Made by a program: the position numbers and the translations under genes. A DNA stretch of 20,214 nucleotides from Hyphomicrobiales bacterium (GTDB taxonomy: Bacteria; Pseudomonadota; Alphaproteobacteria; Rhodobacterales; Rhodobacteraceae), in contig PWLT01000325.1 of the NCBI GenBank assembly GCA_003558415.1, forward strand, positions 1 through 20,214. The letters are read 5' to 3'. Shown here piece by piece: positions 1-19,056 of this stretch; position 1 is the first letter of the stretch, and every line of letters starts with the position of its first letter. The notes under the pieces were generated by a model. The model made no database searches. It had not been told where the DNA came from and saw only the letters and a program-made list of their open reading frames with translations.

Positions 1-127
1 CGGCCAGGCCGGGGACCTTGTCGCTCGGTTTTTCCTCGAGCGCGCCGATGTCCAGGCGCATGTAGATGGCTTGGTAGCGACTGTAGTAATTAGGCCCGCG
101 CAGTGCCCTGTGCTCGAGAATCTGCAA
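1..127 (-). CDS. cphA: Cyanophycin synthetase CphA, N-terminal fragment
   Basis: CphA polymerises aspartate and arginine into the cytoplasmic nitrogen store cyanophycin. Only the first 42 codons lie in the window; the gene continues off the left edge. The visible protein contains ALRGPNYYSRYQAIYMRLD followed by an EKPSDKVPGL segment, which matches the conserved CphA N-terminus (LRGPNYWS, MRLDL, EKPS, PG). The start is a TTG at 127-125, preceded by GGAGG seven bases upstream, and conservation begins directly after it. No ATG could serve, because the first in-frame Met lies inside the conserved block. The start lies within the last codons of cphB in another frame, so translation is probably coupled. 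The ATP-grasp and Mur-ligase-like domains are outside the window. Confidence 0.9.
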   Translation of the reverse strand, partial: MQILEHRALRGPNYYSRYQAIYMRLDIGALEEKPSDKVPGLA

Positions 128-1001
128 CCGTTTCCTCCGATCTACTCGTCAACATATCGTCTTTACACTTCACCATCTCGTCGGGATGGATGACCCGGCG
201 CGCGCTCACATCGAAGCCATAACCGCTGATGAGCGCGTGCATCGTGACGTTGTGGACCGTCACCGCCTCGCCTTCATTGACGTCGGCGACATTCGAACCG
301 GTGATACCGGTACTGTCAACGATAATGACATGGCCGGGGCCGATCGCCTCGAGAATCTTGCCGCCATCGAGGATGACGCCGGCATCCTCGCCGATCCCTA
401 CGCCGAGGATCTCCGGGTTGGTCGCGCCAACCTCCATGAGCCGGGTGAAGCGGCCGCGCTGGAGGAAATGGCTGTCGATGATCATGTTGTGAACGAAGGC
501 CAGCCCGGCGGTCATTTGCACCGCCCCCCTGCGCAGCGAGTCGTTTCGGTCGCCGCCACCATAGATCATCGTCGAGGACATGCAGGCCGCGCCGGCACTG
601 GTGCCTGCCACCACCGCGCCCTGCGCGAGGCGCTCACGGATCGCCGCCAGGGCGTCCGAGGCACCGAGCGTATTGGTCAGCCGCATCTGATCGCCGCCGC
701 TGAGGAAGATCACGCTGCACTTGCGGATCAGGTCGACGTTCTCCTTGTCGTTGGCGTGGGCACGCTCGCGCATGTTGATATGATGCACTGCCCTGGCGCC
801 GAGGCGCGAGAAGACCTCCTCATAGCCCTCGAACACCTTTTCGGGGATGCTGCTGGCGGTGGTGATCACACCGACCGTCGGTTTGTCGTCCTGTGCGAGC
901 GAGAGGACGCATTGAAGGATCTCGGCATCCGACGTCTTGTCCTCGGAGCCGCCGATGGCGATAAGCGTGCCGCGCCGCGCCGCCTTTTCTCGATTGTTCA
1001 T
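90..1001 (-). CDS. cphB: Cyanophycinase CphB (peptidase family S51)
   Basis: Cyanophycinase hydrolyses cyanophycin to beta-Asp-Arg dipeptides in the cytoplasm. The 303-residue protein opens with GTLIAIGGSEDK (11-22), carries FLSGGDQ (99-105), the nucleophile elbow GTSAGA (133-138, Ser135) and DSHFLQRGR (176-184, His178), all standard for S51 cyanophycinases; length is slightly above the usual 270-300. The start is ATG 1001 because AAGGCAGG lies just upstream. An in-frame TTG at 1040 would add 13 residues but lies only about ten bases below a TATAAA box. The C-terminal tail past about residue 290 is not recognisably conserved and overlaps the cphA start by 38 nt. The cphB-cphA order and the overlap indicate one operon. 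Confidence 0.93.
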   Translation of the reverse strand: MNNREKAARRGTLIAIGGSEDKTSDAEILQCVLSLAQDDKPTVGVITTASSIPEKVFEGYEEVFSRLGARAVHHINMRERAHANDKENVDLIRKCSVIFLSGGDQMRLTNTLGASDALAAIRERLAQGAVVAGTSAGAACMSSTMIYGGGDRNDSLRRGAVQMTAGLAFVHNMIIDSHFLQRGRFTRLMEVGATNPEILGVGIGEDAGVILDGGKILEAIGPGHVIIVDSTGITGSNVADVNEGEAVTVHNVTMHALISGYGFDVSARRVIHPDEMVKCKDDMLTSRSEETVADSRAQGTARA

Positions 1002-1050
1002 TGCCTGCCTTGCCGCCGCATTCGCAGCGCCTTTCCACAACCTCTCCCCC

Positions 1051-2240: not shown

Positions 2241-3527
2241 TCACGCGAACCGCGAGGCACGGAAGGCCGAGATGTCCATATTGATCGGGCGATCCAGGAA
2301 AAGGTCGCGAACGATTCTTGCCGTGGCGGGCGCGCCGGTCATTCCGAGATGTCCATGACCGAAGGCAAGTATTACATTTGGTAAGCCTTCGACTCGGTCA
2401 ATGATGGGTATGCTGTCGGGCAGGGACGGACGACAGCCCATCCAATAGGTCGGCTCGCCTGCCGGCGGATGCGAAAACATCGAATGATAATGGGTCAGGA
2501 GAGCTTTCGCGCGCCTGTAATCGGGAGGGGCATCGACCCCCGCTATCTCGACAGTGCCGGCTATGCGCAGCCCCGACGCCATGGGCGTGACAATCGTGCT
2601 GTTGTTCACGTCCATGATGGGGCGCGTGCAAAACCCGCTCACACCCGGAATGGTGGCATGATACCCTCGTTCGGTCTCAAGCGGGATCCTGCACCCGAGT
2701 TTCGCGGCGAGGCGCGCGGACCAGGCACCGGCCGCTATCACCAACCTGTGGGCGTGAACGGATCGCCCGCCATCAAGCCGCAGCGCAACAGTTCTGTCGG
2801 CGCAGACGTCGATATCTGCGACGCGGTCCTTGACGAAAGCGCCACCCGCGGACCGGAAATGCCGCGCAAGCGTCTGCACGGCGTCCTGTGGATCAACGAG
2901 ATGTCCATGGCGCTTCAGCAGCAGCCCGCGCGAAAAGACCGGCGCCAGTTCCGGTTCAAGCTCCGCGATTTCCGATGGTGTCAGCCACTCCATCTCGACG
3001 CCGTGCAACTCGCGCAATTGATGCCCGACCGCTTCGGTTCGATCGGGCCGCGCGGAGCGCCAAACCAGAAGTTGCCCGTGCCGCCGGATAAGGCGCGCCG
3101 ATTCCTCCGGCCCGAGGAGTTCCTCGAAATCCTCGATCGCCGTGTCGAGCAGGGAATGCAGGGCGGCGGCGGAGCGATGTACGGTGCTCATGCGGCTCGC
3201 CCGCACCCATTTCCAGAGCCAGGGCGCGGCTTTGGGAAGGTAACTCCAGCGCACATGCAGGGGGCCGGCGGGATCGATCAGCCACTTTGGAACCTGGCGC
3301 AGCATTCCCGGCAATGCGATCGGTACAACTGACTGAGCGCTCAGACTGCCGGCATTTCCCGAGGAAGCACCGTTTCCGGGGTCCTGCCAGTCGACAAGCG
3401 TGGTCCTGACGCCCGCGCGCGCGAGTTGAACGGCGCAGGCCGAACCGACAACACCGGCACCGACGACGATGGCGGTTTCGGGTGAGGTATCCGGACCAGC
3501 TGCCGGAATCTCAGTAGCCGACGGCAT
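2241..3527 (-). CDS. DadA-like FAD-dependent amino acid oxidoreductase
   Basis: A 428-residue member of the DAO/DadA family, which oxidatively deaminates amino acids, often D-isomers, with FAD. The N-terminus holds the dinucleotide-binding motif VVGAGVVGSA (21-30), followed about 20 residues on by DW in the beta-2 position. The body has RHGQLLVWRS and KRHGHLVDP segments and ends with LAFGHGHLGMT, the usual C-terminal FAD motif of DadA. No signal peptide is seen; such enzymes sit in the cytoplasm or at the inner face of the membrane. ATG 3527 is chosen because AAGGA lies six bases upstream; an earlier in-frame start at 3560 lacks one. It overlaps the GGT gene by 17 nt, so the two are co-translated. 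The substrate is likely an amino acid released by the GGT-family enzyme, but that is inference. Confidence 0.85.
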   Translation of the reverse strand: MPSATEIPAAGPDTSPETAIVVGAGVVGSACAVQLARAGVRTTLVDWQDPGNGASSGNAGSLSAQSVVPIALPGMLRQVPKWLIDPAGPLHVRWSYLPKAAPWLWKWVRASRMSTVHRSAAALHSLLDTAIEDFEELLGPEESARLIRRHGQLLVWRSARPDRTEAVGHQLRELHGVEMEWLTPSEIAELEPELAPVFSRGLLLKRHGHLVDPQDAVQTLARHFRSAGGAFVKDRVADIDVCADRTVALRLDGGRSVHAHRLVIAAGAWSARLAAKLGCRIPLETERGYHATIPGVSGFCTRPIMDVNNSTIVTPMASGLRIAGTVEIAGVDAPPDYRRAKALLTHYHSMFSHPPAGEPTYWMGCRPSLPDSIPIIDRVEGLPNVILAFGHGHLGMTGAPATARIVRDLFLDRPINMDISAFRASRFA

Positions 3528-5094
3528 TGCCGTCCTTTCGGTGATCGGATCCCGCAACATACCCCGCCGGGGTGCGCCGTATCAACTGGGCGCCGCCAAA
3601 GCCGAATGCGCTGTCAGGAGCCTCAAGGCTGATCTCGTGCCCGAGATCCGAGAGTGCTTCCAGCGTTGCCCGTGGCATTGCGGCCTCCAATGCCACCTTG
3701 CGATCCGAGACAAACCGCCAGCGTGGCGCGTCACTCGCAGCCTGGGGGTTCTGACCGGCGATCAGGCAGCGCATCACCATTTGCACGTGACCCTGTGCCT
3801 GCATGGGCCCGCCCATGACTCCGAAGCTCATTTCGGGAAGACCGTTGCTCGTGACAAAGCCCGGAATGATCGTGTGGAACGGGCGCTTCCGGGCGCCCAC
3901 CTCGTTCGGATGGCCGCGCTCAGTCGTAAACCCGTACCCGCGGTTTTGAAGATGGACGCCAGTACCCGGCACAACGACCCCTGACCCGAAACCCGAATAG
4001 TTCGACTGGATGAACGACACCATCATCCCCGCGTCGTCGGCGGCGGTGACGTATACCGTGCCGCCCTCGCGCGGGGCACCCGCGGTGGCGACCTGCGCGC
4101 GCGAGGGGTCGATGGCCCTTGCCCGTGACGCCAGGTAGTCCGGGTCGAGCAGCGCATCGACGCCAGTCGCCATGTATCCCGGATCTCCCACGTAGCGTTT
4201 GGTGTCGGCCAGTGCCAGCTTGATAGCCTCAATCTGGAGGTGAATTGCCTGCGGGTCGTCGGGCTCTCTCACTGCAATGTCGGTATGCGCCAACATTCCA
4301 AGGGCGATGAGCGCTGCAATTCCCTGACCGTTCGGAGGGATCTCGTGAAGGTCGAAACCTTCGAATGCCGTGGAGATCGTGCCGCACCATTCGGGTGTGT
4401 GCTCTGCGAGGTCTTCCGCGCCTAGCGCCGCGCCATGCCTTGCGGCCTCCGCGGCGATCTGCTCCGCGATCACACCGCGGTAGAATGCATCGCCACGAGA
4501 TTCGACAATGAGTCGAAGGGTTTTCGCCTGTGCAGCGTTCCGGAAAAGCTCTCCCGCTCTCGGCGCCCGGCCGTTCGGCATGAATGTCTCGGCGAAGCCG
4601 GGTTGGTCCGAAAGCAGGTTGGCGCCATTTTTCCACAGTGTTGCAATCGTGGGAGAGAGGGCAAAGCCCTGCTCGGCGTACTCGATAGCGGGTTCGAAAA
4701 GGTCATCGAATGGAAGCCTTCCGAAACGGCTTGAAAGTGCCTCCCAGGCAGATACCGCGCCGGGCACGGTCACGCTCTCCCAGCCACGCTGGGGCATCGC
4801 CGCACTTCCGGCGAACCGCTCCGGGGTCCAGGCTGCCGGGGACCGGCCGGACGCGTTAAGGCCGTGCAACTCGCGACCATCCCAGATGATGGCGAAAGCG
4901 TCGGACCCCAGCCCGTTGCCGGTTGGCTCGACCACGGTCAGCGCGATCGCGGCGGCAAGGCCCGCATCGACGGCGTTGCCGCCCGCAAGCAGCATCCTCA
5001 GGCCCGCCTGGGCCGCCAGCGGCTGTGACGTGGCGACGACGTTGCGGGACAGGAGGGGCACGCGCCTTGAGGGGTAGGGTGTTTCAAAGTTCAT
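3511..5094 (-). CDS. ggt: Gamma-glutamyltransferase family Ntn-hydrolase (YwrD-like)
   Basis: A 527-residue GGT-family protein. These enzymes self-cleave before a threonine, which then attacks gamma-glutamyl or related amide bonds. The putative nucleophile is Thr346 in REGGTVYVTAAD, followed by SGFGSGVVVPGTG (367-379), the conserved small-subunit glycine-rich stretch. The N-terminus has the GGNAVDAGLAAA block (38-49) and TGNGLGSDAF (58-67). No signal peptide is seen, unlike periplasmic GGTs, so it is predicted to be cytoplasmic. ATG 5094 has GGAG eight bases upstream; an extension to 5202 is possible but is poorly conserved in character. It follows the MmgE/PrpD gene after a 141-nt gap and overlaps the DadA-like gene. 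The real substrate may be a non-glutathione amide. Confidence 0.9.
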   Translation of the reverse strand: MNFETPYPSRRVPLLSRNVVATSQPLAAQAGLRMLLAGGNAVDAGLAAAIALTVVEPTGNGLGSDAFAIIWDGRELHGLNASGRSPAAWTPERFAGSAAMPQRGWESVTVPGAVSAWEALSSRFGRLPFDDLFEPAIEYAEQGFALSPTIATLWKNGANLLSDQPGFAETFMPNGRAPRAGELFRNAAQAKTLRLIVESRGDAFYRGVIAEQIAAEAARHGAALGAEDLAEHTPEWCGTISTAFEGFDLHEIPPNGQGIAALIALGMLAHTDIAVREPDDPQAIHLQIEAIKLALADTKRYVGDPGYMATGVDALLDPDYLASRARAIDPSRAQVATAGAPREGGTVYVTAADDAGMMVSFIQSNYSGFGSGVVVPGTGVHLQNRGYGFTTERGHPNEVGARKRPFHTIIPGFVTSNGLPEMSFGVMGGPMQAQGHVQMVMRCLIAGQNPQAASDAPRWRFVSDRKVALEAAMPRATLEALSDLGHEISLEAPDSAFGFGGAQLIRRTPAGYVAGSDHRKDGNAVGY

Positions 5095-5235
5095 ATCTGA
5101 TCTCCAGGCATTTGCGCCGCCAGAGGTTTTCGGGAAGGCCGAGTCAGCCGGTTGGCGCTTGGAACTTGGCGGGCGGCAGACCGTGGAGCTTGCCCCGGTC
5201 ACCTCCTGCCCGAGAGTGGGTTCGCTGCTCGAGTA

Positions 5236-6612
5236 TCATCCGGCTGACAGCATGTCGCTGATTTCTTGCAATGCGCCGGGCCTTTCGAATTGCATCACGG
5301 TCTCGAACAGGCGGTGCGCATACGATTCTCCCATGGCCGGGACGACAAGCGACATGAACTTCGTTTCGAATTGCTCGATGCTCATGGGATTTTCAGGGTG
5401 CCCGAGAAAGCACTTGGTCTCACTGCGGGTGTGCAACCCGTCCTGGCACCAGATTTCGAGGTAGGCTTCCGCTTGTGGCTGATCCCGAACAGGTTCGATC
5501 TCGATCAGCGGAAGCAATCGGCGAATCTCCTTTTCCGTGAGAACCGGGGGTTCGAAATCGCAGATATTCATGCTGTACCCGGATAGCGCCGCGGCGATGC
5601 AGTATGCGACGCTGAACTTCGCCTCGAGTGGCGTCCGCGGTTCCGTGTGGCCGGCGGTGAACTGTGCGCTCCAGTGCACCTTGGCATGAACGCGTGAGAT
5701 CGTCCGCCCCTGAATCTCTCCACGCAGTTTCTGGGCAGCCAGGATTGACGCATGTGCAGCCCTGCAGCAGGCATAGGGCTTGTATCCGTTCTGATCCAGC
5801 TCCCACCCCTCGAAAGGGGTTTCGGGCACCTCGACCGAACCATCCTGAATGAAGGCGCGCAGCAGGCCAGAGTTCAGCTCGAAAAGGGAGCGAGACGCCG
5901 TGAGCCCCTTGCTGGCCAGCTCGGCAGCCAGGATGCCGTTCCACGCAGACCGACCCGCATGATAGGGTTTCGCATCGGTCCCGAAGGAGCCGACGAGGCC
6001 CGCAGCCGAGGTTGCGGCCAGGCCCAACGCATTTGCCGCCATTGTTTCGTCGTGGCCCGACATTGCCGAAACGGCGGCGGCGGCGCCGACAACACCATTG
6101 ATGCCGGTTGGATGTAGCCCGCGCTCCTGCAACGCCTTTCCTATCCCCCTTGTGCCGCCGTGACCGAGCCGGGCCATGATTTCGTAGCCGGCAATGAAAC
6201 CGCGAAGCGCCAACTGTTCATCCAGGCCGCGGTCGACGGCAACGGCGAGCGCTGTCGACCAGACCGGAGCGCTGATATGCCCCGCTCCCGCCGCATGAGT
6301 GTCATCGAAGTCGAGGCAATGTGCGGCCGTGCCATTCACGAAGGCCGCCAGAGACGCATTGGTCCGCGGCCCGAGGAAGACCGGTGCATTTCCCGGTGCC
6401 TTCCACCCGTCAGCGATGGCGCGAGCGCCTCGCGCGGCTGGTTCGTGAATTCCGCCGATGCCAACTGCAACGTGGTCGATGAGCGCAAATCTTGCTTTCT
6501 CGACGATCCGTTCCGGAATGAGCATGCTTTGTGCGTTGGCCACAAACGTCGCGAAATATTCACCGCGCGGGTGTCTTTTTGCCGTCTCGCTGGACGTGTC
6601 AGACAGTGTCAA
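5236..6612 (-). CDS. MmgE/PrpD family protein
   Basis: A 458-residue member of the MmgE/PrpD family, which contains 2-methylcitrate dehydratase, cis-aconitate decarboxylase and various carboxylate dehydratases and isomerases. Family marks include FALIDHVAVGIGG near the N-terminus, FVNGTAAHCLDFDDTH, HPTGINGVVGAAAA, GSFGTDAKPYHAGRSA and the YKPYACCRAAHA segment. The start is unresolved. A TTG at 6612 with GGGAG six bases upstream gives the family's usual length. In-frame starts reach a GTG at 6756, but that one has a poor ribosome site, and the extra 48 residues look non-conserved. It is the first gene of the minus-strand arm and lies about 160 nt downstream of a good promoter. It probably processes a carboxylate released or imported by the cluster; the reaction is unknown. 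Confidence 0.88.
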   Translation of the reverse strand: MTLSDTSSETAKRHPRGEYFATFVANAQSMLIPERIVEKARFALIDHVAVGIGGIHEPAARGARAIADGWKAPGNAPVFLGPRTNASLAAFVNGTAAHCLDFDDTHAAGAGHISAPVWSTALAVAVDRGLDEQLALRGFIAGYEIMARLGHGGTRGIGKALQERGLHPTGINGVVGAAAAVSAMSGHDETMAANALGLAATSAAGLVGSFGTDAKPYHAGRSAWNGILAAELASKGLTASRSLFELNSGLLRAFIQDGSVEVPETPFEGWELDQNGYKPYACCRAAHASILAAQKLRGEIQGRTISRVHAKVHWSAQFTAGHTEPRTPLEAKFSVAYCIAAALSGYSMNICDFEPPVLTEKEIRRLLPLIEIEPVRDQPQAEAYLEIWCQDGLHTRSETKCFLGHPENPMSIEQFETKFMSLVVPAMGESYAHRLFETVMQFERPGALQEISDMLSAG

Positions 6613-6762
6613 GACGTGCTCCCGTGCGAGATGGACCTGGCACGCCCGCTCCGGGGCGCAGGTCTCTCTTGCCAGAAGCAGCGACCTCCGGCAGCCTTCG
6701 ATGCCGGCGCGGTAACGGCGCTTCCCGGCCATTGCCGAACAAGGATGATGCGTCACTCTCCA

Positions 6763-6791
6763 TTGACCGGCATTCTCATATAGGTTAACAA
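6763..6791 (+). promoter_or_regulatory. Candidate promoter for the regulator-tct arm
   Basis: On the plus strand TTGACC (6763-6768) is followed after 17 bases by TAACAA (6786-6791), a 5/6 and a 3/6 match to sigma70 boxes. RNA would start near 6798 and carry a leader of about 150 nt to the regulator ATG. It interleaves with the opposing minus-strand promoter. Confidence 0.4.
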
Positions 6792-6806
6792 TTTAGTCCA
6801 GATCAA
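6777..6806 (-). promoter_or_regulatory. Candidate promoter for the MmgE/PrpD-GGT-DadA arm
   Basis: On the minus strand TTGATC (6801-6806) and TATATG (6777-6782) are 18 bases apart, a 4/6 and a 5/6 match to sigma70 boxes. RNA would start near 6770, giving a leader of about 158 nt to the TTG at 6612. The boxes overlap those of the plus-strand promoter, and an AT-rich stretch with GTTAAC and AATTT/AAATT half-sites lies between, a plausible operator for the XRE-cupin protein. Confidence 0.5.
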
Positions 6807-6947
6807 AATTCACCGCCTGGCAGTTGGCTGCGCATGAGCGCGGTGTCTGGACGGCGAAAGGTGGAGGCGAATCATGGGGCTGATCCTTGTAGAGCGCCGT
6901 CGGGGGCAGGTGTGACCACGCCGCCCGGGGAGTTCTCCGAGGTGCGC

Positions 6948-7568
6948 ATGGACACCGCCCCTGACAAGGAGCGAGTGGAGGGGCGGCCTTCGCATTCCAC
7001 ACTCGGAGCGCGCATACGCACGTATAGGAGAGAAAAAAACCTTTCTCTTGCAGAGGTTTCGCGTTTGTCGGGCGTTTCCGTTGCGATGCTGAGCCGAATC
7101 GAACGCGGAAAATCCACACCCTCCCTCAAGGTCCTCGAGAAGCTGCGCGGCGCTCTCGGCTTGACGATGGGCGACCTTTTCCCACCTTTCGCTGCCACAG
7201 CGCACGGTGATCCGTGTCCCGTGGTCCGGGAGCGGGAGCGCATCTCGCTCGACTTCGACGAAATCGGACTGACCAAGCAAAGATTATCCCCCGGTGATAA
7301 TTCTGATCTCGAGTTGCTGTTGCTTGTCATCCAGCCTGGCGGCGGCTCCGGCCCCGAGCCCTGGACTCGGCCCGGCGAAAAGGCGGGGGTTGTGGTATCC
7401 GGAGCGGTGCGGCTGGAGATAGGTGGTGACGCCTATGAGTTGCATCCGGGCGACAGTTTCCAGTTCGACTCGGGGAAGCCTCACCGTTTTGAAGCTCTCG
7501 GCGATCAGACGGCGCAGCTCCTGTGGATCATCAAGTCGAACCCCCTGGCCAAGGCAGTGGACGCATGA
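6948..7568 (+). CDS. XRE-family transcriptional regulator with cupin domain
   Basis: A 206-residue repressor or activator of the HTH_3 plus cupin_2 architecture, the same layout as PuuR. The helix-turn-helix spans about 19-75 (LGARIRTYRREK, LSLAEVSRLSGVS, recognition helix AMLSRIERGK). The C-terminal cupin spans about 125-200 (GAVRLEIGGDAYELHPGDSF, then GKPHRF), where a small effector usually binds. ATG 6948 has GAGG six bases upstream; longer in-frame starts to 6834 add a low-complexity extension. It stands between the two arms, 43 nt before tctB, so it probably controls both from the overlapping promoters. The effector may be the transported compound or a breakdown product. Confidence 0.88.
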   Translation: MDTAPDKERVEGRPSHSTLGARIRTYRREKNLSLAEVSRLSGVSVAMLSRIERGKSTPSLKVLEKLRGALGLTMGDLFPPFAATAHGDPCPVVRERERISLDFDEIGLTKQRLSPGDNSDLELLLLVIQPGGGSGPEPWTRPGEKAGVVVSGAVRLEIGGDAYELHPGDSFQFDSGKPHRFEALGDQTAQLLWIIKSNPLAKAVDA

Positions 7569-7611
7569 GCGTGAAGCCGCCCCGACCACTCGCTGAACGG
7601 AAGCACGGACA

Positions 7612-8061
7612 ATGACCTTCAGAAGTGCAGAGGTGATGGCGGGACTGATGCTGGTGGCATTTTCGGTCTTCGCCTGGCGTGAGGCAGCCTCGATCCGCGG
7701 CGATGCGGCCTTCTTTCCATCTGCGATAATCGTGGCGCTTGGTTTCTTTTCGCTCGTCTATCTGGTGCGATCGGTGGCAGCCGGGCGCAGGACAGAAGCG
7801 GTGTTCGAGCGCTGGTGGATCTTTGTTGCCGCCCTTGCAATCTCGCTGATCTACGCCAACGCAGTGGCATATGTCGGCTACGTTACCTCGACCGTGGTCT
7901 TCATTCCGGTGATGGCGTGGGTGATAGGCTTTCGCCGTCCAGCCTACATCGCTGTGACTACGCTCGTATACCTTCTTTGCGTGTATTTCATGTTCGAGGT
8001 TGTCTTCCGCCGGCCGCTTCCGTCAGAGATGCTGCTCGAACTCCTCAGGAGTGTTCGCTGA
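7612..8061 (+). CDS. tctB: TTT transporter small membrane subunit TctB
   Basis: The small integral membrane subunit of a tripartite tricarboxylate transporter, a secondary carboxylate importer in the inner membrane. The 149-residue protein has four to five hydrophobic segments: about 5-22, 32-54, 68-86, 89-106 and 109-131. The early FFPSAIIVALGFFSLVYL segment is typical of TctB. Sequence conservation in this family is low; the call rests on size, hydrophobicity and position directly before tctA. The ribosome site is weak (GGAAGCACGGAC). The stop overlaps the tctA start as TGATG, so translation is coupled. Confidence 0.88.
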   Translation: MTFRSAEVMAGLMLVAFSVFAWREAASIRGDAAFFPSAIIVALGFFSLVYLVRSVAAGRRTEAVFERWWIFVAALAISLIYANAVAYVGYVTSTVVFIPVMAWVIGFRRPAYIAVTTLVYLLCVYFMFEVVFRRPLPSEMLLELLRSVR

Positions 8062-9587
8062 TGCTGGCTGCCTTCACGGATGCACTGATTGCAGTCATGA
8101 CGCTCAGCAACTTGGTTGCCATGGTTTCGGGTACCATCGCCGGCATCATCATCGGCGCCCTTCCGGGTATCAACGTCACCGTCGGTATCGCAATCCTCAT
8201 CCCGCTCACATTCGGCATGGAGCCACTTTTCGCACTTGGCCTGATCGCCGGCATCTTCAATGGCGCCTCCTACGGCAACGCAATACCGGCCATTCTGCTC
8301 AACGTGCCGGGTACTCCGGCGGCGGTGGCCACCACGTTCGACGGGCATCCAATGGCGCAAAAGGGCCGGTCAGCTCATGCGTTGCGCATCGCGTGCTATG
8401 CCTCGGCGCTGGGGGCTATTGCTTCGGCGATTTCGCTCATTCTCATCGCGCCGCCACTTGCGAGGGTCACTCTCCTCTTCGGTCCGGCGGAATATTTCTG
8501 GTTGGCGATTCTCGGCCTCAGTTCCATCGCCGTTCTGCTGGGCAGCGACCCGGTGAAGGGGCTGATTGCTGCCTGCGTTGGCATGTTGCTTGCCACGGTC
8601 GGCATTGATCAAATGACTGGCGCGATGCGCTTCCACTTCGGCTACTGGGAGCTCGCCGACGGCCTCCCTACAGTTGTGGTCCTGACCGGTCTGTTTGCCT
8701 TCTCGCGTGTCCTCATGATGGCACAGGAGGGAAAGCTGACCGGAGTTAGCTGCGAAGACCTCAAGCTGTCGCGTGACAAATCCGAAGGCCCGATCCTCAA
8801 GGGCATGCTGCCCACCCTGACCCGCTCCGGGATAATCGGAATCATCGTCGGTATTCTGCCGGGCGTCGGCGGCAACGCAGCGGCACTTCTCGCCTATAAC
8901 GAGGAAAAGCGCGTGGCGAAGGACGCCGAGACCTTTGGCAAGGGCAATCCAAAGGGTGTCGCCGCGGCCGAGTGCGGAAACAGCGCCGACAACAGTTCTT
9001 CGCTCATTCCAATGCTGACACTGGGCATCCCCGGCAATGCCATCGCCGCGATCATCATGGGCGCATTGCTGGTGCACGGGCTGGTTCCCGGCCCCCAGCT
9101 GTTCCGGGAAGAACCCCTTATCGTCTATGGCTTCATGATACAGATGCTGTTTACCGCGGCGATTCTGTTCGTGCTCGGCGGCATGGTGGCAACGCGCATA
9201 TTCGCGCAGGTGCTAAGGCTGCCCAGCGTCGTGCTTGTGCCGCTAATCGTCTCTCTGATGACCATCGGCATCTATACCACGACCTATGAGATCATGCATC
9301 TCTACATGGCCATCGGTTTCGGCCTGGTCGGGTATTTCATGATAAAGCTCGACTTCCCGGTCGCACCGTTCGTTCTTGGCCTGATCCTTGGTGGCGTGGC
9401 CGAGTTCAACTTCCGCGTCGCGATGCGCATCGCGCAGGGGGACTGGACATATCTTTTCCAGAACGTCGTGTCGAAGATACTGGTGGCGCTTCTTGCGCTG
9501 ATCGTGCTCACGGCGCTGTCGCGCTTCATCAGGGATTTGCGCAGCCGAACTCGGGGCACCGAGGCCGAGCGGATGACCGAGGAGTGA
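8061..9587 (+). CDS. tctA: TTT transporter large membrane subunit TctA
   Basis: The large permease subunit, 508 residues with about 10-12 membrane segments. Both halves carry the diagnostic loop motif: GALPGIN (32-38) and a second copy, GILPGVGG, near 263-270. The conserved GHPMAQKG (95-102) and ECGNSADNSS followed by LTLGIPGNAIAA are also present. The ATG at 8061 shares bases with the tctB stop and has AGGAG nine bases upstream. A longer in-frame reading back to 7815 only overlaps tctB in another frame and is rejected. With TctB and the binding protein TctC it imports a carboxylated solute using the proton or sodium gradient. Confidence 0.96.
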   Translation: MLAAFTDALIAVMTLSNLVAMVSGTIAGIIIGALPGINVTVGIAILIPLTFGMEPLFALGLIAGIFNGASYGNAIPAILLNVPGTPAAVATTFDGHPMAQKGRSAHALRIACYASALGAIASAISLILIAPPLARVTLLFGPAEYFWLAILGLSSIAVLLGSDPVKGLIAACVGMLLATVGIDQMTGAMRFHFGYWELADGLPTVVVLTGLFAFSRVLMMAQEGKLTGVSCEDLKLSRDKSEGPILKGMLPTLTRSGIIGIIVGILPGVGGNAAALLAYNEEKRVAKDAETFGKGNPKGVAAAECGNSADNSSSLIPMLTLGIPGNAIAAIIMGALLVHGLVPGPQLFREEPLIVYGFMIQMLFTAAILFVLGGMVATRIFAQVLRLPSVVLVPLIVSLMTIGIYTTTYEIMHLYMAIGFGLVGYFMIKLDFPVAPFVLGLILGGVAEFNFRVAMRIAQGDWTYLFQNVVSKILVALLALIVLTALSRFIRDLRSRTRGTEAERMTEE

Positions 9588-9634
9588 TGTTAAGTTTCCG
9601 TCAAGAACCAAACCCAACCACAGGAGGTAGACTA

Positions 9635-10603
9635 ATGCACATGAAATTCAGGACAGCGCTCTGCGCGATGGCAGTCGCAGCCGTTGGTACAACGGCTTCG
9701 GCTCAATCGGACTATCCCAGCCGCACCATCGAGATCCTGGTGGGATTCGCCGCAGGCGGACCGGTCGACTCCACTACGCGCGCGGCCGCGCCTTTCCTCG
9801 AAAAGCATATCGGAGACGGCGCTTCGATCGCGGTGATCAACCGCCCCGGCGCGGCAGGCGTCGTGGCGTCGATCGCCGCATCGCAGGCCGATCCCGATGG
9901 GCATACGCTGATGATGTACTCCTACCCGGCATTGGCGACCGCGCCCATCGGTCAGGACGAGGAACCATACAACGTTGACGACTTCGAGTATCTCGGCAAC
10001 GTCACCTCGGATCCGCACAACTTCTTCGTGGCGCAGGATTCGCCGTACGAGACTCTCGACGATCTGATGGAGGCGGCGCGCGAGAACCCGGGAACGATCA
10101 ATGTCGCTGCTGCTGGTTCCGGTGGAGCCGCGCATCTGGCGCTGCTGGTGTTCGAGGCCGAGACCGGGCTCTCATTCAACTATACCCCTGCCGATGGCGG
10201 CGCGGGTACGTTGACCCAGGTGCTGGGTGGACATGTCGACGCCGGCATCACCACGCTCAGCGCGCTCGTCCCCTATGTGGAGGAGGAGCAGATGCGCATC
10301 ATCGCGAGCTTCGCCGATGAGCGGCCCGCGGCGCTGCCCGATGCCCCGACTGCCCGTGAACAGGGGGTCGACGTGCTGTGGGGCGCCCTGCGCGGCATCG
10401 CCGCGCCGGGACCGCTGCCGGACGATGTGCGCGACAGACTTGCAGAGGCCGTCGAAGCGACCATGTCGGATCCCGAGTTCATTGAACTCGCCGAGCGCCA
10501 GGGGATTCCCCTCATGTATCTCGATGGCGAGGCGTTCAGGGAAATCGTCGACACCGATCTGTCACGGCTGAACGAGCTCTGGGAGACTTCGCCCTGGCAG
10601 TGA
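9635..10603 (+). CDS. tctC: TctC/Bug-family periplasmic solute-binding protein
   Basis: The extracytoplasmic binding protein of the TTT system, 322 residues. A signal peptide is clear: MHMKFR, a hydrophobic core, and an ASA cleavage site at residue 23 before QSDYPSR. Bug marks follow: YPSRTIEILVGFAAGGPVD near the mature N-terminus, NRPGAAG, and DPDGHTLMM. Its ATG has an AGGAGG seven bases upstream, the strongest ribosome site in the cluster, which fits the excess of binding protein over permease. Bug proteins bind carboxylates through water-bridged carboxylate contacts near these loops, and known ligands include dicarboxylates, amino acids and aromatic acids, so the family does not settle the substrate. 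Confidence 0.95.
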   Translation: MHMKFRTALCAMAVAAVGTTASAQSDYPSRTIEILVGFAAGGPVDSTTRAAAPFLEKHIGDGASIAVINRPGAAGVVASIAASQADPDGHTLMMYSYPALATAPIGQDEEPYNVDDFEYLGNVTSDPHNFFVAQDSPYETLDDLMEAARENPGTINVAAAGSGGAAHLALLVFEAETGLSFNYTPADGGAGTLTQVLGGHVDAGITTLSALVPYVEEEQMRIIASFADERPAALPDAPTAREQGVDVLWGALRGIAAPGPLPDDVRDRLAEAVEATMSDPEFIELAERQGIPLMYLDGEAFREIVDTDLSRLNELWETSPWQ

Positions 10604-10617
10604 GGGGTTGAAGAGCG

Positions 10618-10641
10618 GGCCGGTCGCAGCTGCGGCCGGCC
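10618..10641. promoter_or_regulatory. Intra-operon stem-loop after tctC
   Basis: A 24-base near-perfect palindrome, GGCCGG-T-CGCAG against CTGCG-G-CCGGCC with one T-G wobble, starts 15 nt after the tctC stop. No T-run follows, so it is probably not a full terminator. Stem-loops of this kind after binding-protein genes are known to protect the upstream message and raise its level over downstream genes. Confidence 0.6.
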
Positions 10642-10679
10642 TGTGCGTTGATCGAAAACCGATCCGGAGGAGCACCACG

Positions 10680-12371
10680 ATGACCTGCAAACCCCTCGTG
10701 ACAGGACGACGCTATGCGGTGGCGGCCGGGCACCCACTGGCCGCAATGGCCGGATCGGAAATCCTGCGCAGTGGAGGAAATGCGATCGATGCTGGCGTCG
10801 CCGCAGGGATCGCCACCGAAGTTCTCGAGAGCATCTTAGTCGGTTTTGGCGGCGTGGCTCCGATCATTCTCTACTCCGCGGAACACGACGAGATAGTGAC
10901 GATCAGCGGTCTTGGAACTTGGCCAAGGTCGGTGGATTCCGACTATTTCAACCGGCTACATGGCGGGCGGATCCCTCTCGGAATTCTGCGCACCGTGGTT
11001 CCTGCGGCGCCGGACGCCTGGATCACCGCGCTGTCGCGCTATGGCCGCATGAGCTTTGGCGAGGTCGCCGCCTTTGCCATCGAGTATGCGCGTGACGGCT
11101 TTCCGATGTACGAATTCTTCAGCGCGCGCATTGCCGAAAAGCACGAAGGATATGCACGGTATCCATCCACAGCCGCAATCTACCTGCCGAACGGTGCGCC
11201 CCCCGTCCCCGGAGAGAACTTCCGCCAGCCGGAGCTGGGTGCCTCGATACAGTTCCTGGTCGAGGAGGAGCGCGCCGCGGCGGCGAAGGGCGGCAGGGCA
11301 GCGGGCCTCGCCGCGGCGCGCCACGCGTTTTACGAGGGAGATATTGCGCGCGAGATGGTCGCGCACGTTCAGTCGGAAGGTGGCGAACTGACCCTCGACG
11401 ATCTTAAGGACTTCTCGGTCGATGTGGAAAAACCCGTCTCGATCCGTTTCGGCGACTGGCAGATCAATGGCTGTGGACCGTGGTGCCAGGGGCCGATGCT
11501 GCTGCAGGCACTGAACATCGTCAAGACCTTCGACCTGCGCGCGATCGGCCACAACTCCGCCGATTACGTGCACCTGTTGTGCGAGGCGATCAAGCTCGCC
11601 GCGAGCGACCGCGACCGTTTCTACGGCGACCCGAGATTCGTCGATGTGCCCATGGAAAGGCTCCTGTCCGATTCACATGCGCGCGCGCAAGCCGAGCGCA
11701 TCCGCAATGATCGGGCGACCTCCTTCGCGGATGCCGATGACGCCGCGGCCGAAGCCAAAGCCGATCTCGCAGTCGGGGACTCCAGCATGGATACGAGTTA
11801 TGTCTGCGTCGTCGACAAGGATGGCAATGCGTTTTCGGCCACACCCAGCGACGCGCCACATCACGCTCCGGTCGCGCCCAAGCTGGGTTTCCTTGTCTCC
11901 GCGCGCGGCTCGCAGTCCTGGACAGATCTCGGGCATCCGGCCAGTGTCGCTCCCGGCAAGCGGCCCCGGCTGACACCCAATCCGGCGCTTGCGGTGGGCC
12001 CCGATGGCCGGATCATGCCATTTGGTTCACCCGGAGGCGATGTGCAGACCCAGGCGATGCTGCAAGGCTTCATCAACCGGGTGGTCTTCGGGTTCGACAC
12101 GCAGCGCGCGGTGGAAAGCCCACGCTTTGCCACTTATGACTTCCCCTCGTCATGGGAGCCGCATGAGCGGCAGCATCTCGTCCTCAAGCTCGAGAATACC
12201 CTTGATACCGAGGTTGGCTCGGACCTTGCCGCGCGGGGCCACAACGTTCAGTCTTGGCCCGATCTCATGTGGACGGCCGGTTCGCTCTCGCTGGTCGACT
12301 TCGACCGTCGCAGCGGGTACATGGCGGCGGGCTCCGATCCGCGACGCGAAGCTTATGCCATCGGCTGGTAG
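10680..12371 (+). CDS. Second gamma-glutamyltransferase family Ntn-hydrolase
   Basis: A 563-residue GGT-family protein, clearly divergent from the one at 3511-5094. It has the GGNAIDAGVAAG block (32-43), followed by GFGGVAP (55-61) where classical enzymes read GGGGF. The likely autocatalytic threonine is Thr372 in SMDTSYVCVVDKDGNAFSAT, in a DTSY context rather than the GGTVY of its neighbour. The C-terminal FGSPGGDVQTQAMLQ matches the family's GSPGGS/D oxyanion and product-binding stretch. No signal peptide is visible, so it is predicted to be cytoplasmic. GGAGG precedes the ATG at 10680, about 40 nt after the stem-loop. The family includes oxamate amidohydrolase and beta-lactam acylases, so the substrate need not be gamma-glutamyl. 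Confidence 0.88.
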   Translation: MTCKPLVTGRRYAVAAGHPLAAMAGSEILRSGGNAIDAGVAAGIATEVLESILVGFGGVAPIILYSAEHDEIVTISGLGTWPRSVDSDYFNRLHGGRIPLGILRTVVPAAPDAWITALSRYGRMSFGEVAAFAIEYARDGFPMYEFFSARIAEKHEGYARYPSTAAIYLPNGAPPVPGENFRQPELGASIQFLVEEERAAAAKGGRAAGLAAARHAFYEGDIAREMVAHVQSEGGELTLDDLKDFSVDVEKPVSIRFGDWQINGCGPWCQGPMLLQALNIVKTFDLRAIGHNSADYVHLLCEAIKLAASDRDRFYGDPRFVDVPMERLLSDSHARAQAERIRNDRATSFADADDAAAEAKADLAVGDSSMDTSYVCVVDKDGNAFSATPSDAPHHAPVAPKLGFLVSARGSQSWTDLGHPASVAPGKRPRLTPNPALAVGPDGRIMPFGSPGGDVQTQAMLQGFINRVVFGFDTQRAVESPRFATYDFPSSWEPHERQHLVLKLENTLDTEVGSDLAARGHNVQSWPDLMWTAGSLSLVDFDRRSGYMAAGSDPRREAYAIGW

Positions 12372-12417
12372 GTACCTCATCCATCGGCTTGTTGCCGGAG
12401 GTGAACATCCGATTCCG

Positions 12418-12434
12418 GGCCGGGGGTGCCGGCC
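12418..12434. promoter_or_regulatory. GC-rich hairpin between the second GGT gene and the oxidoreductase gene
   Basis: GGCCGG (12418-12423) and CCGGCC (12429-12434) form a perfect 6-bp stem with a five-base loop. The GTG at 12426, a possible long start of the next gene, would lie in the loop, which argues for the TTG at 12462. No T-run follows. Confidence 0.45.
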
Positions 12435-12461
12435 GGACTCGCTCAATCAGAGGCCCTGATC

Positions 12462-13763
12462 TTGGAAAACATCTTTCTCGAAGACTTCACGCCTGACAAG
12501 CCGTATTGGTGGGAGTTTTTCCAACCCCGCGATGACCTCCGAGCGGACCTTCCGCTCCATACGGATGTCGCGATCATCGGCGGTGGCTATACAGGTTTGA
12601 CCGCCGCACATGTTCTGGCGGAATCCGGCATTGATGTAACAGTGATCGAAGCGCAGGAGTTCGGCTTTGGTGCCAGCACCCGTAACGGCGGGGGCGTTGG
12701 CGGGGCCGTCAATGTCGGAAAATCATTGAGTGGGCGGCGATTGCAGTATCGGACGGGGGAACGCGAGGCGATCCTCGCCGAATCCGCCCAAGCCTTTCGT
12801 TCGATCGAAAACCTCGTGGAGACAGGAAATATCGCCTGTGATTGGCAGTCCAACGGGCGCTTCATCGGTGCGTGGACGCCAAAGCACTTTCGCGACCAGG
12901 AAGCCTCGCTGCCCCTGATGAACGAACACGCCGACCTTGGAGCGGAAATGCTGCCGCGCGAACGCCAACGCGAGCATCTCCAGACCGACCTCTATCACGG
13001 CGGTATGCTTGTGAAGCGTTCCGCCACGGTCAATCCATCGCTTCTTTACAAGGGGCTTCTGGAGCGCAGCATGGCATCCGGCGCGCGGCTTTGCGGGCGC
13101 ACGCGGGTCACCGGCCTCGCCCGTTCGGGAAGCCGCTGGGAACTGAGCACGGACCGCGGAGTTCTCAAGGCCGACAAGGTGATCGTTGCGGCCAACGGCT
13201 ATATCGATCCCGCGGTGCCAATGCTGCGCAAGAAGATCATCCCGGTATTCAGCAACATCATCGTCACCGAAGAACTGCCCGATGGACTGGCCAGCCACCT
13301 CTTTCCCACAAATCGCTATGTGAACGACACGCTGAGGATCCGCTCCTACTATCGGCTTACTCCGGATGGAAAGCGCGTGCTTTTCGGGGGGCGCGGGCGT
13401 TTCAGTACCGCAAGTGCGATAGATCACGCCCGCTCGCTTTATCCCATGATGGTCCAGCGCTTGCCGGATCTGAAGGGTATCAGGATCGCCTATGCATGGT
13501 CGGGACGGATCGCATTCACGCTCGATTCCGTCCCGCATGTCGGCGAACAGGATGGCGTGCATTTCGCACTTGGCTGCAACGGAAGTGGCGTAGCCATGAT
13601 GACCTATCTGGGCGATTACCTCGGAAAGAAGATTGCAGGGAAGGCAAACTATGTCAGCCGTTTCGAGCGCCCCCTACCGGGCCATCCGCTTTATGGCGGC
13701 AACCCGTGGTTTCTCCCACTGATAGGGCGTTACTTTCAGTTCCTCGATCGCCTGGGTCGGTGA
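12462..13763 (+). CDS. PuuB/OrdL-like FAD-dependent oxidoreductase
   Basis: A 433-residue DAO-superfamily flavoenzyme, closest in style to gamma-glutamylputrescine oxidase PuuB and OrdL. The N-terminus ENIFLEDFTPDKPYWWE is typical of these proteins. The dinucleotide-binding motif IIGGGYTGLTAAH is at about 38-50, followed by ASTRNGGGVGG, a variant of the flavin-contact segment. The C-terminal half has YAWSGRIAFTLDSVPH and LGCNGSGVAMM. Start: TTG at 12462 preceded by AGAGG at eight bases, matching where conservation begins; a GTG at 12426 is the alternative. It is the last gene of the plus arm. A natural role would be to oxidise an amine or amino acid released by the GGT-type enzyme, but a gamma-glutamylated amine is also possible. 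Confidence 0.87.
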   Translation: MENIFLEDFTPDKPYWWEFFQPRDDLRADLPLHTDVAIIGGGYTGLTAAHVLAESGIDVTVIEAQEFGFGASTRNGGGVGGAVNVGKSLSGRRLQYRTGEREAILAESAQAFRSIENLVETGNIACDWQSNGRFIGAWTPKHFRDQEASLPLMNEHADLGAEMLPRERQREHLQTDLYHGGMLVKRSATVNPSLLYKGLLERSMASGARLCGRTRVTGLARSGSRWELSTDRGVLKADKVIVAANGYIDPAVPMLRKKIIPVFSNIIVTEELPDGLASHLFPTNRYVNDTLRIRSYYRLTPDGKRVLFGGRGRFSTASAIDHARSLYPMMVQRLPDLKGIRIAYAWSGRIAFTLDSVPHVGEQDGVHFALGCNGSGVAMMTYLGDYLGKKIAGKANYVSRFERPLPGHPLYGGNPWFLPLIGRYFQFLDRLGR

Positions 13764-14297: not shown

Positions 14298-14678
14298 ATG
14301 CTTGACCGTGATCCCCATCATGACCCCCGCGCGATCGATGCCGAGGCAATCGCCGCGGTCGCCAAGGCGCTGGCGCATCCCGCGCGGGTGAAGATCATCG
14401 CCTTCCTGCTGTCGCGGCCCGGATGTATCGGGGGCGACATCGTGGGCGAGGTTGGCCTGGCGCAATCCACCGTGTCCGAGCATCTGCGCATTCTCAAGGC
14501 GTCGGGGCTCGTCGTGGGTACGATCGAGCGTCCGCGTATCTGCTATTCGCTCAACCCGAAGGTGCTCGCACCGCTGCACGCGCTGATCGGCATGGTCGAG
14601 GCGCGCGATGCTTCGCAGGCCGACGCGCCCTGCTGCTACACCCCGCAAGGCTGCATTCCCAAGGAGAACAACCAATGA
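14298..14678 (+). CDS. arsR: ArsR-family arsenite-responsive repressor
   Basis: A 126-residue winged-helix repressor that leaves its operator on binding As(III) or Sb(III). The HTH core spans about 16-90: KALAHPARVKIIAFLLS, then the recognition helix AQSTVSEHLRILKASGLV and the wing. It lacks the ELCVC metal site of plasmid R773 ArsR. Instead the C-terminus has Cys112, Cys113 and Cys119 (PCCYTPQGC), the same CC-x5-C spacing as Cys95/96/102 of the Acidithiobacillus ferrooxidans ArsR, so inducer binding is probably at the C-terminal tail. It leads the operon; its TGA overlaps the next ATG (ATGA). Confidence 0.93.
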   Translation: MLDRDPHHDPRAIDAEAIAAVAKALAHPARVKIIAFLLSRPGCIGGDIVGEVGLAQSTVSEHLRILKASGLVVGTIERPRICYSLNPKVLAPLHALIGMVEARDASQADAPCCYTPQGCIPKENNQ

Positions 14679-15208
14679 CCAATATGACCGTCTTTGATCC
14701 GGCCATGTGCTGCTCGACCGGGATCTGCGGCACCGAAGTGGACCAGAAGCTGATCGATTTCGCCGCCGATCCCGCGATCAAGGCGTTGATGGAAGAGTCG
14801 GGCAGCGAGGGGCTTCCGGCCATCGTGGTGGATGGCCGGATCGACTCGACGAGCCGCCATCCGGCACGCGCGGAACTGGCCGGATGGGCCGGTATTGCCG
14901 CGCCCGAGGTCGAGGTCACCGAGGCCGTGCGCGAGTTGATCGCGCTCGGCGCGGCCATCGGCGCAAGCTGCGAGCCGTGCCTGAAGTATCACGTGAAGAA
15001 GTCGCGCGAGCTGGGCCTGAGTGACGCCGCCATGCGCGAAGCGATCGCCGTTGGCCGCATGATCAGGGAGGCATCCGCGAAAAACATCCTCGGGCTGGCC
15101 GACAAGCTGATCCCCGATGAGGGCACTGCCGCCAAGGGCTGCGGCGTCGACAAGGCCGAGGAGATGCAAGCGTCGCCCGAGAAGGAGAAAACCGGCGCCT
15201 GCTGCTGA
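14675..15208 (+). CDS. arsD: ArsD / AhpD-like (carboxymuconolactone decarboxylase) fusion protein
   Basis: ArsD carries As(III) to the ArsA ATPase. The N-terminus of this 177-residue protein is ArsD-like: VFDPAMCCSTGICG with Cys12, Cys13 and Cys18 at the same positions as in R773 ArsD, then VDQKLIDFAAD. By comparison with ArsD, about 25 residues (the second strand region) are then missing, and similarity resumes at IKALMEESGSEGLPAIVVDG (35-54). From about 80 a second domain follows with Glu87, Cys99, Cys102 and His106, the E-x11-CxxC-x3-H relay of AhpD and other CMD-family thiol enzymes. The protein ends with Cys156 and Cys176-Cys177, echoing the ArsD cysteine tail. AAGGAG precedes the ATG, which overlaps arsR. 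A joint metallochaperone and thiol-redox role is inferred. Confidence 0.88.
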   Translation: MTNMTVFDPAMCCSTGICGTEVDQKLIDFAADPAIKALMEESGSEGLPAIVVDGRIDSTSRHPARAELAGWAGIAAPEVEVTEAVRELIALGAAIGASCEPCLKYHVKKSRELGLSDAAMREAIAVGRMIREASAKNILGLADKLIPDEGTAAKGCGVDKAEEMQASPEKEKTGACC

Positions 15209-15239
15209 TCCGCGGGCGAGGCGATCCACCCAAGTGCAA

Positions 15240-15281
15240 GTGCCGGGGCGCAATGCCCCCGCACGCCCATCATCTGTGGGC
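15240..15281. promoter_or_regulatory. Tandem stem-loops between the arsD fusion and arsA
   Basis: Two hairpins abut. The first is GTGC-c-GGGGC / GCCCC-c-GCAC (15240-15264) with loop GCAAT and one C-C mismatch. The second is GCCCA / TGGGC (15265-15281) with a seven-base loop. The arsA ribosome site GAAGGAG begins two or three bases later. They may tune arsA translation or mark a processing site. Confidence 0.5.
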
Positions 15282-15293
15282 GAAGGAGAGTCC

Positions 15294-17048: not shown

Positions 17049-17115
17049 GAGGATCCGATCGCCGGGGCTGCACGACGCTACGCCGGTGATTGATTGCGAA
17101 GAAAGGTCTGTATGA

Positions 17116-19049: not shown

Positions 19050-19056
19050 GGCAGAG

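What the first reader, a model, noticed from the sequence alone, without database searches (positions are those of the whole stretch)
2241..13763. Divergent catabolic island: TTT importer, two GGT-type hydrolases, two FAD oxidases, MmgE/PrpD, XRE-cupin regulator
Nine genes arranged around one regulator combine a carboxylate importer with two cytoplasmic Ntn-hydrolases and two amine/amino-acid oxidases. The set resembles a Puu-like logic (PuuR-like regulator, PuuB-like oxidase) but lacks a gamma-glutamyl ligase, aldehyde dehydrogenase and PuuD. Instead a ready-made amide may be imported, cut by GGT-type enzymes and oxidised. I know of no characterised pathway with this exact set.
Basis: inference. 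Interest (0 to 1): 0.8.

Follow-up and report, generated by a model that had tools for sequence, protein, structure and literature searches.

The report
Uptake-and-breakdown island with LmbA-like hydrolase
A nine-gene bacterial cluster appears to import a nitrogen-containing carboxylate and break it down with two amine oxidases and two unusual hydrolases, one of which is related to an antibiotic-pathway enzyme that cuts carbon-carbon bonds rather than to ordinary gamma-glutamyl enzymes; the compound itself is still unknown.

Summary
Eight recur in the same order in a related MAG, whose contig ends before the place of the ninth, with dN/dS 0.05-0.17. Nine exact contig-length matches among the closest hits for GGT-B, PrpD and OX2 suggest that the linkage recurs in diverged relatives. 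Two clusters in one genome of another family carry TTT, GGT-B and the DadA-like oxidase.

Best reading: an inducible uptake-and-oxidation unit using acyl-Thr, probably oxalyl-type, hydrolysis. Substrate and bond type (C-C or C-N) are unproven. New variant of a known kind.

The parts
2241..3527 (-). OX1: DadA-like FAD-dependent amino-acid dehydrogenase/oxidase (DAO family); an alternative start at 3560 is possible; overlaps the end of GGT-A
   Evidence: Pfam DAO 198.6 bits; PRK00711 D-amino acid dehydrogenase 188.8 bits, below its cut-off of 383; orthologue in L006 81% identical; same subfamily in L109 and L114
3511..5094 (-). GGT-A: GGT-type Ntn-hydrolase of the B. halodurans 2NLZ / T. acidophilum 2I3O branch; predicted nucleophile is the Thr of GGTVYV
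   Evidence: Pfam G_glu_transpept 480.5 bits; TIGR00066 306.6 bits, below its cut-off of 357.85; tree; pocket residues
5236..6756 (-). MmgE/PrpD family protein; the true start is unresolved, profile similarity begins near 6600
   Evidence: Pfam MmgE_PrpD_N and _C; best solved relatives IDS-epimerase 139 bits and B. subtilis IRG1 134 bits
6772..6788 (.). candidate promoter/operator ATTCTCATATAGGTTAA in the divergent region
   Evidence: 17 bases identical in L006 inside otherwise poorly conserved intergenic DNA; only copy in the window with up to 3 mismatches, 0 in 100 shuffles; function not tested
6834..7568 (+). XRE-cupin transcriptional regulator; a second possible start is 6948
   Evidence: Pfam HTH_3 and Cupin_2; PuuR model 71.7 bits, below its cut-off of 211; 29% identity to E. 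coli PuuR over 163 aa
7612..8061 (+). TctB, small membrane subunit of a tripartite tricarboxylate transporter
   Evidence: Pfam TctB 51.3 bits
8061..9587 (+). TctA, large membrane subunit
   Evidence: Pfam TctA 466.5 bits; 632 bits to the TctA of L109, against 346 bits or less for the other TctA matches seen outside L006
9635..10603 (+). TctC, periplasmic binding protein with a signal-peptide-like N-terminus
   Evidence: Pfam TctC 154.3 bits; 325 bits to the TctC of L109, against 160 bits or less for the others seen outside L006
10680..12371 (+). GGT-B: LmbA-like Ntn-hydrolase; predicted self-cleavage between Asp370 and Thr371 (numbered from the second codon, as)
   Evidence: Pfam 352.8 bits; TIGR00066 268.2 bits, below cut-off; LmbA2991 is the best solved structure; Asp-Thr invariant in the 22 aligned sequences, own included; tree split support 98
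12426..13763 (+). OX2: PuuB/AmaA-like FAD-dependent amine oxidase; start uncertain (12426 or 12462)
   Evidence: Pfam DAO 205 bits; pipecolate_AmaA 149.9 bits, below its cut-off of 600; 30% identity to PuuB over 422 aa

Best explanation
The island is an accessory, regulator-controlled unit for uptake and breakdown of a nitrogen-containing carboxylate. Step 1 (family-based): TctC captures the anion and TctAB imports it. Step 2 (inferred): a PuuB/AmaA-like oxidase (OX2) and a DadA-like oxidase (OX1) oxidise amine C-N bonds to imines or enamines and then 2-oxo acids. Step 3 (family placement shown, reaction inferred): GGT-B matures by cutting itself at Asp370|Thr371 and uses Thr371 to take an acyl group, most likely an oxalyl (2-oxo-acid-type) group as in LmbA, from the substrate, releasing it by hydrolysis; the bond broken may be C-C (as in LmbA) or C-N (as reported for HpxW on oxamate). 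GGT-A does a second, non-gamma-glutamyl acyl hydrolysis. PrpD, an epimerase/dehydratase/decarboxylase-fold enzyme, reshapes a hydroxy- or imino-polycarboxylate fragment. The XRE-cupin protein is the likely substrate sensor acting on the divergent promoter region. Separate estimates: co-functional import-plus-oxidation unit without gamma-glutamyl chemistry about 0.8; oxalyl-type chemistry by GGT-B about 0.35.
Against: GGT-B is only 34% identical to LmbA2991 and none of the calls shows an activity for it. Across 33 wider GGT-B-subfamily stretches (some cut short by contig ends), 10 have an importer within 3 kb against 2 of 20 control stretches (p = 0.08), and 7 of 33 against 1 of 20 have a DAO oxidase (p = 0.11), so the association outside the close clade is weak. 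Other importers (TRAP, peptide ABC) stand near some GGT-B genes instead of TTT, so one fixed substrate for the subfamily is unlikely. Of 79 PrpD loci, 23 have TTT within 3 kb but only L006 has a GGT within 3 kb, and L024 within 6 kb.
Confidence: 0.5

Rival explanations
1. GGT-A and GGT-B are plain C-N amidohydrolases: an imported amide of a dicarboxylic acid, oxamate or N-acyl amino acid is cut into a dicarboxylate and an amine or (D-)amino acid, which OX1 and OX2 then oxidise. No C-C chemistry occurs.
For: PMC5519988 (2017; passages) says that the other Ntn-hydrolase-fold enzymes characterised until then cut only C-N bonds. HpxW, a GGT-fold enzyme, is reported to release oxalate and ammonium from oxamate (PMC5270733 passages). 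A FmdA/AmdA-type amidase gene lies near GGT-A in 5 of 29 stretches of the same order and next to GGT-B in L126 and L135. GGT-A relatives end TTT operons with no DAO-type oxidase annotated in the fetched flanks.
Against: GGT-B falls with LmbA2991, not with 2NLZ or the GGTs, and shares its Asp-Thr and pocket signature.
Confidence: 0.35
2. A Puu-like pathway for gamma-glutamylated amines: a ready-made gamma-glutamyl amine is imported, oxidised by OX2 and cleaved by the GGT-type enzymes.
For: OX2 is 30% identical to PuuB and the regulator 29% identical to PuuR.
Against: Recalled gamma-glutamyl contacts are lost in both GGT-type proteins; both are below the GGT cut-off and the regulator is below the PuuR cut-off; none of the nine genes is a ligase, aldehyde dehydrogenase or PuuD type.
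Confidence: 0.05
3. Two separate functional units share a regulator region by chance: TTT, GGT-B and OX2 on one side, and PrpD, GGT-A and OX1 on the other.
For: The parts are found apart: GGT-A with TTT only, PrpD with TTT only, GGT-B with TRAP or peptide ABC importers.
Confidence: 0.1

Closest known systems
LmbA / LmbA2991 / Ant6 (gamma-GT homologues of lincomycin and anthramycin producers; PDB 6J3A)
   Same: GGT fold, Asp-Thr self-cleavage site, Arg at E. coli position 430, RPRxT and PGGD motifs, same side of the tree; only LmbA2991 was compared
   Different: 34% identity; LmbA and Ant6 act in antibiotic biosynthesis in actinobacteria and the role of LmbA2991 is described as unclear, whereas GGT-B lies in a proteobacterial uptake and oxidation island; no activity is known to me for GGT-B
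B. halodurans 2NLZ ('cephalosporin acylase' by annotation) and T. acidophilum 2I3O
   Same: GGT-A branch: Thr start of the small subunit after Gly or Asp, QNRG, K-R-x-[FY]-H-T motif
   Different: No pathway context known from these calls; GGT-A is in a TTT-linked island
E. coli Puu pathway
   Same: XRE-cupin regulator related to PuuR and a PuuB-like FAD oxidase
   Different: No PuuA, PuuC, PuuD or PuuP type among the nine genes; adds TTT, two GGT-type hydrolases, PrpD and a second oxidase
D. shibae pDSHI05 and S. pontiacus tctCBA-GGT operons
   Same: TTT importer directly followed by a GGT-A-type hydrolase, 67% and 62-64% identical to GGT-A
   Different: No DAO-type oxidase, PrpD or second GGT annotated in the 8-kb flanks; divergent LysR rather than XRE-cupin regulator
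HpxW oxamate amidohydrolase (PDB 5HFT)
   Same: GGT fold; solved relative of both proteins
   Different: Not the nearest solved relative of either; its own paper was not held

Membership tests
Canonical gamma-glutamyltransferase | NCBIfam TIGR00066 equivalog score at or above 357.85 bits | tested here: not met
   GGT-A 306.6, GGT-B 268.2 bits
Canonical gamma-glutamyltransferase | Residues at E. coli R114, Q430, D433, S462, S463 (roles in gamma-glutamyl binding recalled) | tested here: not met
   GGT-A S/R/G/H/T, GGT-B L/R/Q/L/T; B. licheniformis GGT as control keeps D433, S462, S463 and has E at 430 (114 not covered)
Canonical gamma-glutamyltransferase | N-terminal nucleophile Thr of the small subunit | tested here: met
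   Thr at E. coli 391 in both; autocleavage itself not tested
LmbA-like gamma-GT homologues | Asp-Thr at the self-cleavage site | tested here: met
   D370-T371 invariant in GGT-B and 21 homologues; motif described in PMC5519988 (passage). T. acidophilum 2I3O also has Asp-Thr, so the pair is not unique to the group
LmbA-like gamma-GT homologues | Groups with LmbA apart from canonical GGTs | tested here: met
   Split support 98; small subunit only; LmbA2991 the sole characterised LmbA-like member included
LmbA-like gamma-GT homologues | C-C bond hydrolysis releasing oxalate | not testable with these tools
   Needs enzyme assay
HpxW oxamate amidohydrolase | Nearest relative of GGT-A or GGT-B by sequence or fold | tested here: inconclusive
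   5HFT matched by both but below other chains; substrate residues not compared
Puu pathway | PuuR equivalog score at or above 211 bits | tested here: not met
   71.7 bits
Puu pathway | gamma-glutamyl ligase, aldehyde dehydrogenase and PuuD in the same cluster | tested here: not met
   None among the nine genes; PuuA-like proteins on other contigs
Tripartite tricarboxylate transporter | TctA, TctB and TctC above Pfam gathering scores | tested here: met
   466.5, 51.3 and 154.3 bits against 28.9, 29.1 and 27
MmgE/PrpD superfamily | Both Pfam domains above gathering score | tested here: met
   175.2 and 85.6 bits against 32.1
2-methylcitrate dehydratase PrpD | NCBIfam PrpD equivalog score | tested here: not met
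   Only PrpD_hiGCgrampos listed, 30.2 against 950 bits
L-pipecolate oxidase AmaA | NCBIfam score at or above 600 bits | tested here: not met
   OX2 149.9 bits
D-amino acid dehydrogenase DadA | NCBIfam PRK00711 score at or above 383 bits | tested here: not met
   OX1 188.8 bits

The most novel reading that the evidence does not exclude
The island is a degradative pathway in which a GGT-fold Ntn-hydrolase (GGT-B) breaks a carbon-carbon bond: the FAD oxidases turn an imported cyclic or secondary amine carboxylate into an imine/enamine carrying a 2-oxo-acid side chain, and GGT-B clips off that side chain as oxalate, the same chemistry LmbA uses in antibiotic biosynthesis but run for nutrition. The relatives at 44-60% identity in the same class would then be a large reservoir of C-C hydrolases likely to be named gamma-glutamyltransferases.
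Probability: 0.2. Interest if true: 0.75.

Novelty: new variant of a known kind. Interest (0 to 1): 0.5.

Why it matters
If GGT-B does LmbA-type chemistry, C-C cleaving Ntn-hydrolases are not confined to actinobacterial antibiotic clusters, and many proteins named gamma-glutamyltransferase may be misnamed (25 of 289 sampled genomes of the class, own included, hold a match at E 1e-130 or better). The intrinsic role of LmbA2991 is described as unclear (PMC5519988, passage); an operon with its own importer gives a direct genetic handle: find the ligand of TctC and the substrate class follows.

Tried and rejected
Gamma-glutamyl amide catabolism: rejected on lost pocket residues and branch position.

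Oxalate as product, tested through oxalyl-CoA decarboxylase (TIGR03254, E 1e-150): absent from the own genome (75% complete) and from G306; over the cut-off in 5 of 24 GGT-B-bearing against 2 of 46 other genomes of the class. The groups were not size-matched, so inconclusive.

General GGT-B-importer linkage: 33 stretches (30 covering the 32 non-own places, 3 covering those; some short because contigs end), 10 with an importer within 3 kb, against 2 of 20 control stretches from GGT-B-bearing genomes, p = 0.08; the importer queries came partly from these same loci, which favours the test set. Not claimed as significant.

Of 7 named plasmids looked at out of 50 with a match, 4 have TctC or a whole TTT directly beside GGT-A (two of them TctC alone); S. 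alexandrii and Erwinia do not, and Ketogulonicigenium has TTT about 5 kb away. Of 4 plasmid hits for GGT-B I looked at 3: a TTT set within 4 kb in Sulfitobacter sp. W027, a lone TctC within a few kb in both Roseomonas, which also have an ABC binding-protein gene directly before GGT-B.

PrpD as guide to function: 79 loci; TTT within 3 kb in 23, a GGT within 3 kb only in L006 and within 6 kb also in L024.

Cyanophycin link: cyanophycinase adjoins the island, but in the 1.3 kb that L006 shows beyond OX1 there is a DUF1989 gene instead; treated as a neighbour only.

RNA elements: no Rfam match at gathering thresholds. Inverted repeats in 6600-7000: one imperfect pair, not convincing.

Literature: searches returned no paper; one search returned 479, of which 25 were listed and seen only as listing entries with abstract starts, on clinical or other GGT topics; two searches returned 5 and 2. 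Passages were read of PMC5519988, PMC6085292, PMC4780272 and PMC5270733, plus the abstract and opening text of PMC5519988; PMC4780272 proposed a different, glutamate-transfer mechanism for LmbA. PMC6085390 was seen in the listing only. Absence from print is not claimed.
Full report
What is there. The window is contig C323 of a 2.37-Mb, 75%-complete genome. Family searches confirm nine open genes between 2241 and 13763. Minus strand: PrpD (5236 to about 6756), GGT-A (3511-5094), OX1 (2241-3527). Plus strand: XRE-cupin regulator (6834 or 6948 to 7568), TctB, TctA, TctC, GGT-B (10680-12371), OX2 (12426-13763). The genes are tightly packed; TctB ends where TctA starts, and OX1 overlaps the end of GGT-A. 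GGT-A and GGT-B have no signal-peptide-like N-terminus, unlike E. coli GGT and TctC (crude hydropathy only). On the left lies cyanophycinase, on the right an arsenic-resistance operon.

Is it a unit? In L006, a Rhodobacteraceae MAG (record name CSSed162cmA_174R1; soda-lake sediment is my reading of that name, recalled), eight of the nine genes occur in the same order and orientation; the contig stops right after GGT-B. The eight pairs are 77-92% identical with dN/dS of 0.05-0.17. The protein lists give indirect evidence for more cases: exact longest-contig lengths recur among the closest hits, 17862, 11129 and 10465 in all three lists (GGT-B, PrpD, OX2), 38086 in PrpD and OX2, 7098 in GGT-B and PrpD, and 9749, 7746, 8728 and 3756716 in GGT-B and OX2 (the 120 listed hits of each, compared by eye). 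GGT-B identity in these cases runs from 88 to 69%. At least two short lengths shared by low-ranked hits (3001, 2326) show that chance matches happen, so this is evidence and not proof; gene order on those contigs was not seen. In G306, a genome of the same class but another family, TctB-TctA-TctC-GGT-B-OX1 stands as one run (L109; TctA 632 and TctC 325 bits to the window, other matches outside L006 at most 346 and 160), and a second run TctC-TctA-GGT-B-OX1 with a SoxB-like and SoxA-like pair ahead of it stands about 23 kb away (L114). The island is rare: GGT-B relatives at E 1e-130 or better occur in 3 of 394 genomes of the family, own included, in 25 of 289 of the class sample, own included, and in 1 of 398 of the phylum sample, the own genome only.

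The rest of the unit. OX2 is PuuB-like (30% over 422 aa) and AmaA-like (149.9 bits); OX1 is DadA-like; neither reaches a curated cut-off of the NCBIfam models shown, so their substrates are open. PrpD is about equally far from IDS-epimerase and from B. subtilis IRG1, and in 23 of 79 PrpD loci a TTT gene lies within 3 kb. GGT-A relatives end tctCBA operons in D. shibae and S. pontiacus. 2-hydroxyacid dehydrogenase genes near GGT-B in L109 and L125 fit a 2-oxo acid product, but both loci are from one genome. A 17-base element between prpD and the regulator is identical in L006 while the surrounding DNA has diverged; it is the best candidate for the regulator's site or promoter.

Judgement. The best explanation is an uptake-and-oxidation unit with LmbA-type acyl-Thr hydrolysis. 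What is shown: gene content, conservation, family placement, loss of the gamma-glutamyl pocket residues. What is inferred: co-regulation, the order of steps, the oxalyl group, the substrate. Results against it are the weak statistics for the wider subfamily, no oxalyl-CoA decarboxylase found in the incomplete own genome or in G306, and the alternative importers near other GGT-B genes. I rate it a new variant of a known kind, interest 0.5.

Noticed in passing
window 14423-19440 (+): Arsenic-resistance operon: ArsD-like protein with a CMD-family region in the same frame, two-domain ArsA ATPase, SBF-family permease (ACR3-type by recall), double Usp protein and a low-molecular-weight-phosphatase-type ArsC.
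   Followed up: partly
window 1-1040 (-): Cyanophycinase gene (above its NCBIfam cut-off), and at the contig edge what looks like the start of cyanophycin synthetase (recalled motif, not searched).
   Followed up: partly
L006 10546-11316 (-): DUF1989 gene just beyond OX1 in the related island; the corresponding place in the window was not compared with it.
   Followed up: no
L151 (K. pneumoniae plasmid NZ_CP141562.1, 99335-116657): Cluster of hydantoinase/oxoprolinase pair, molybdopterin oxidoreductase, two MmgE/PrpD proteins, a TauE-like exporter and an amino-acid ABC importer; two PrpD proteins with a TauE-like exporter, and a TTT importer, also occur on a Rhizobium daejeonense plasmid (L150).
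   Followed up: no
L191, L196, L205, L207, L211: FmdA/AmdA-type amidase gene near GGT-A relatives in 5 of 29 stretches of the same order, hinting at small-amide metabolism.
   Followed up: no
L114 1681-4668: SoxB-like plus SoxA-like pair (opine-oxidase type by recall) directly ahead of a TTT, GGT-B and OX1 run.
   Followed up: partly
L125 15443-16552 (+): DUF1611 gene near a TRAP importer, GGT-B, 2-hydroxyacid dehydrogenase and XRE-cupin set.
   Followed up: no
L149 (Sulfitobacter sp. W027 plasmid, 104481-124124): A GGT-B relative (43% identity) with TTT genes on one side and a TRAP importer on the other.
   Followed up: no
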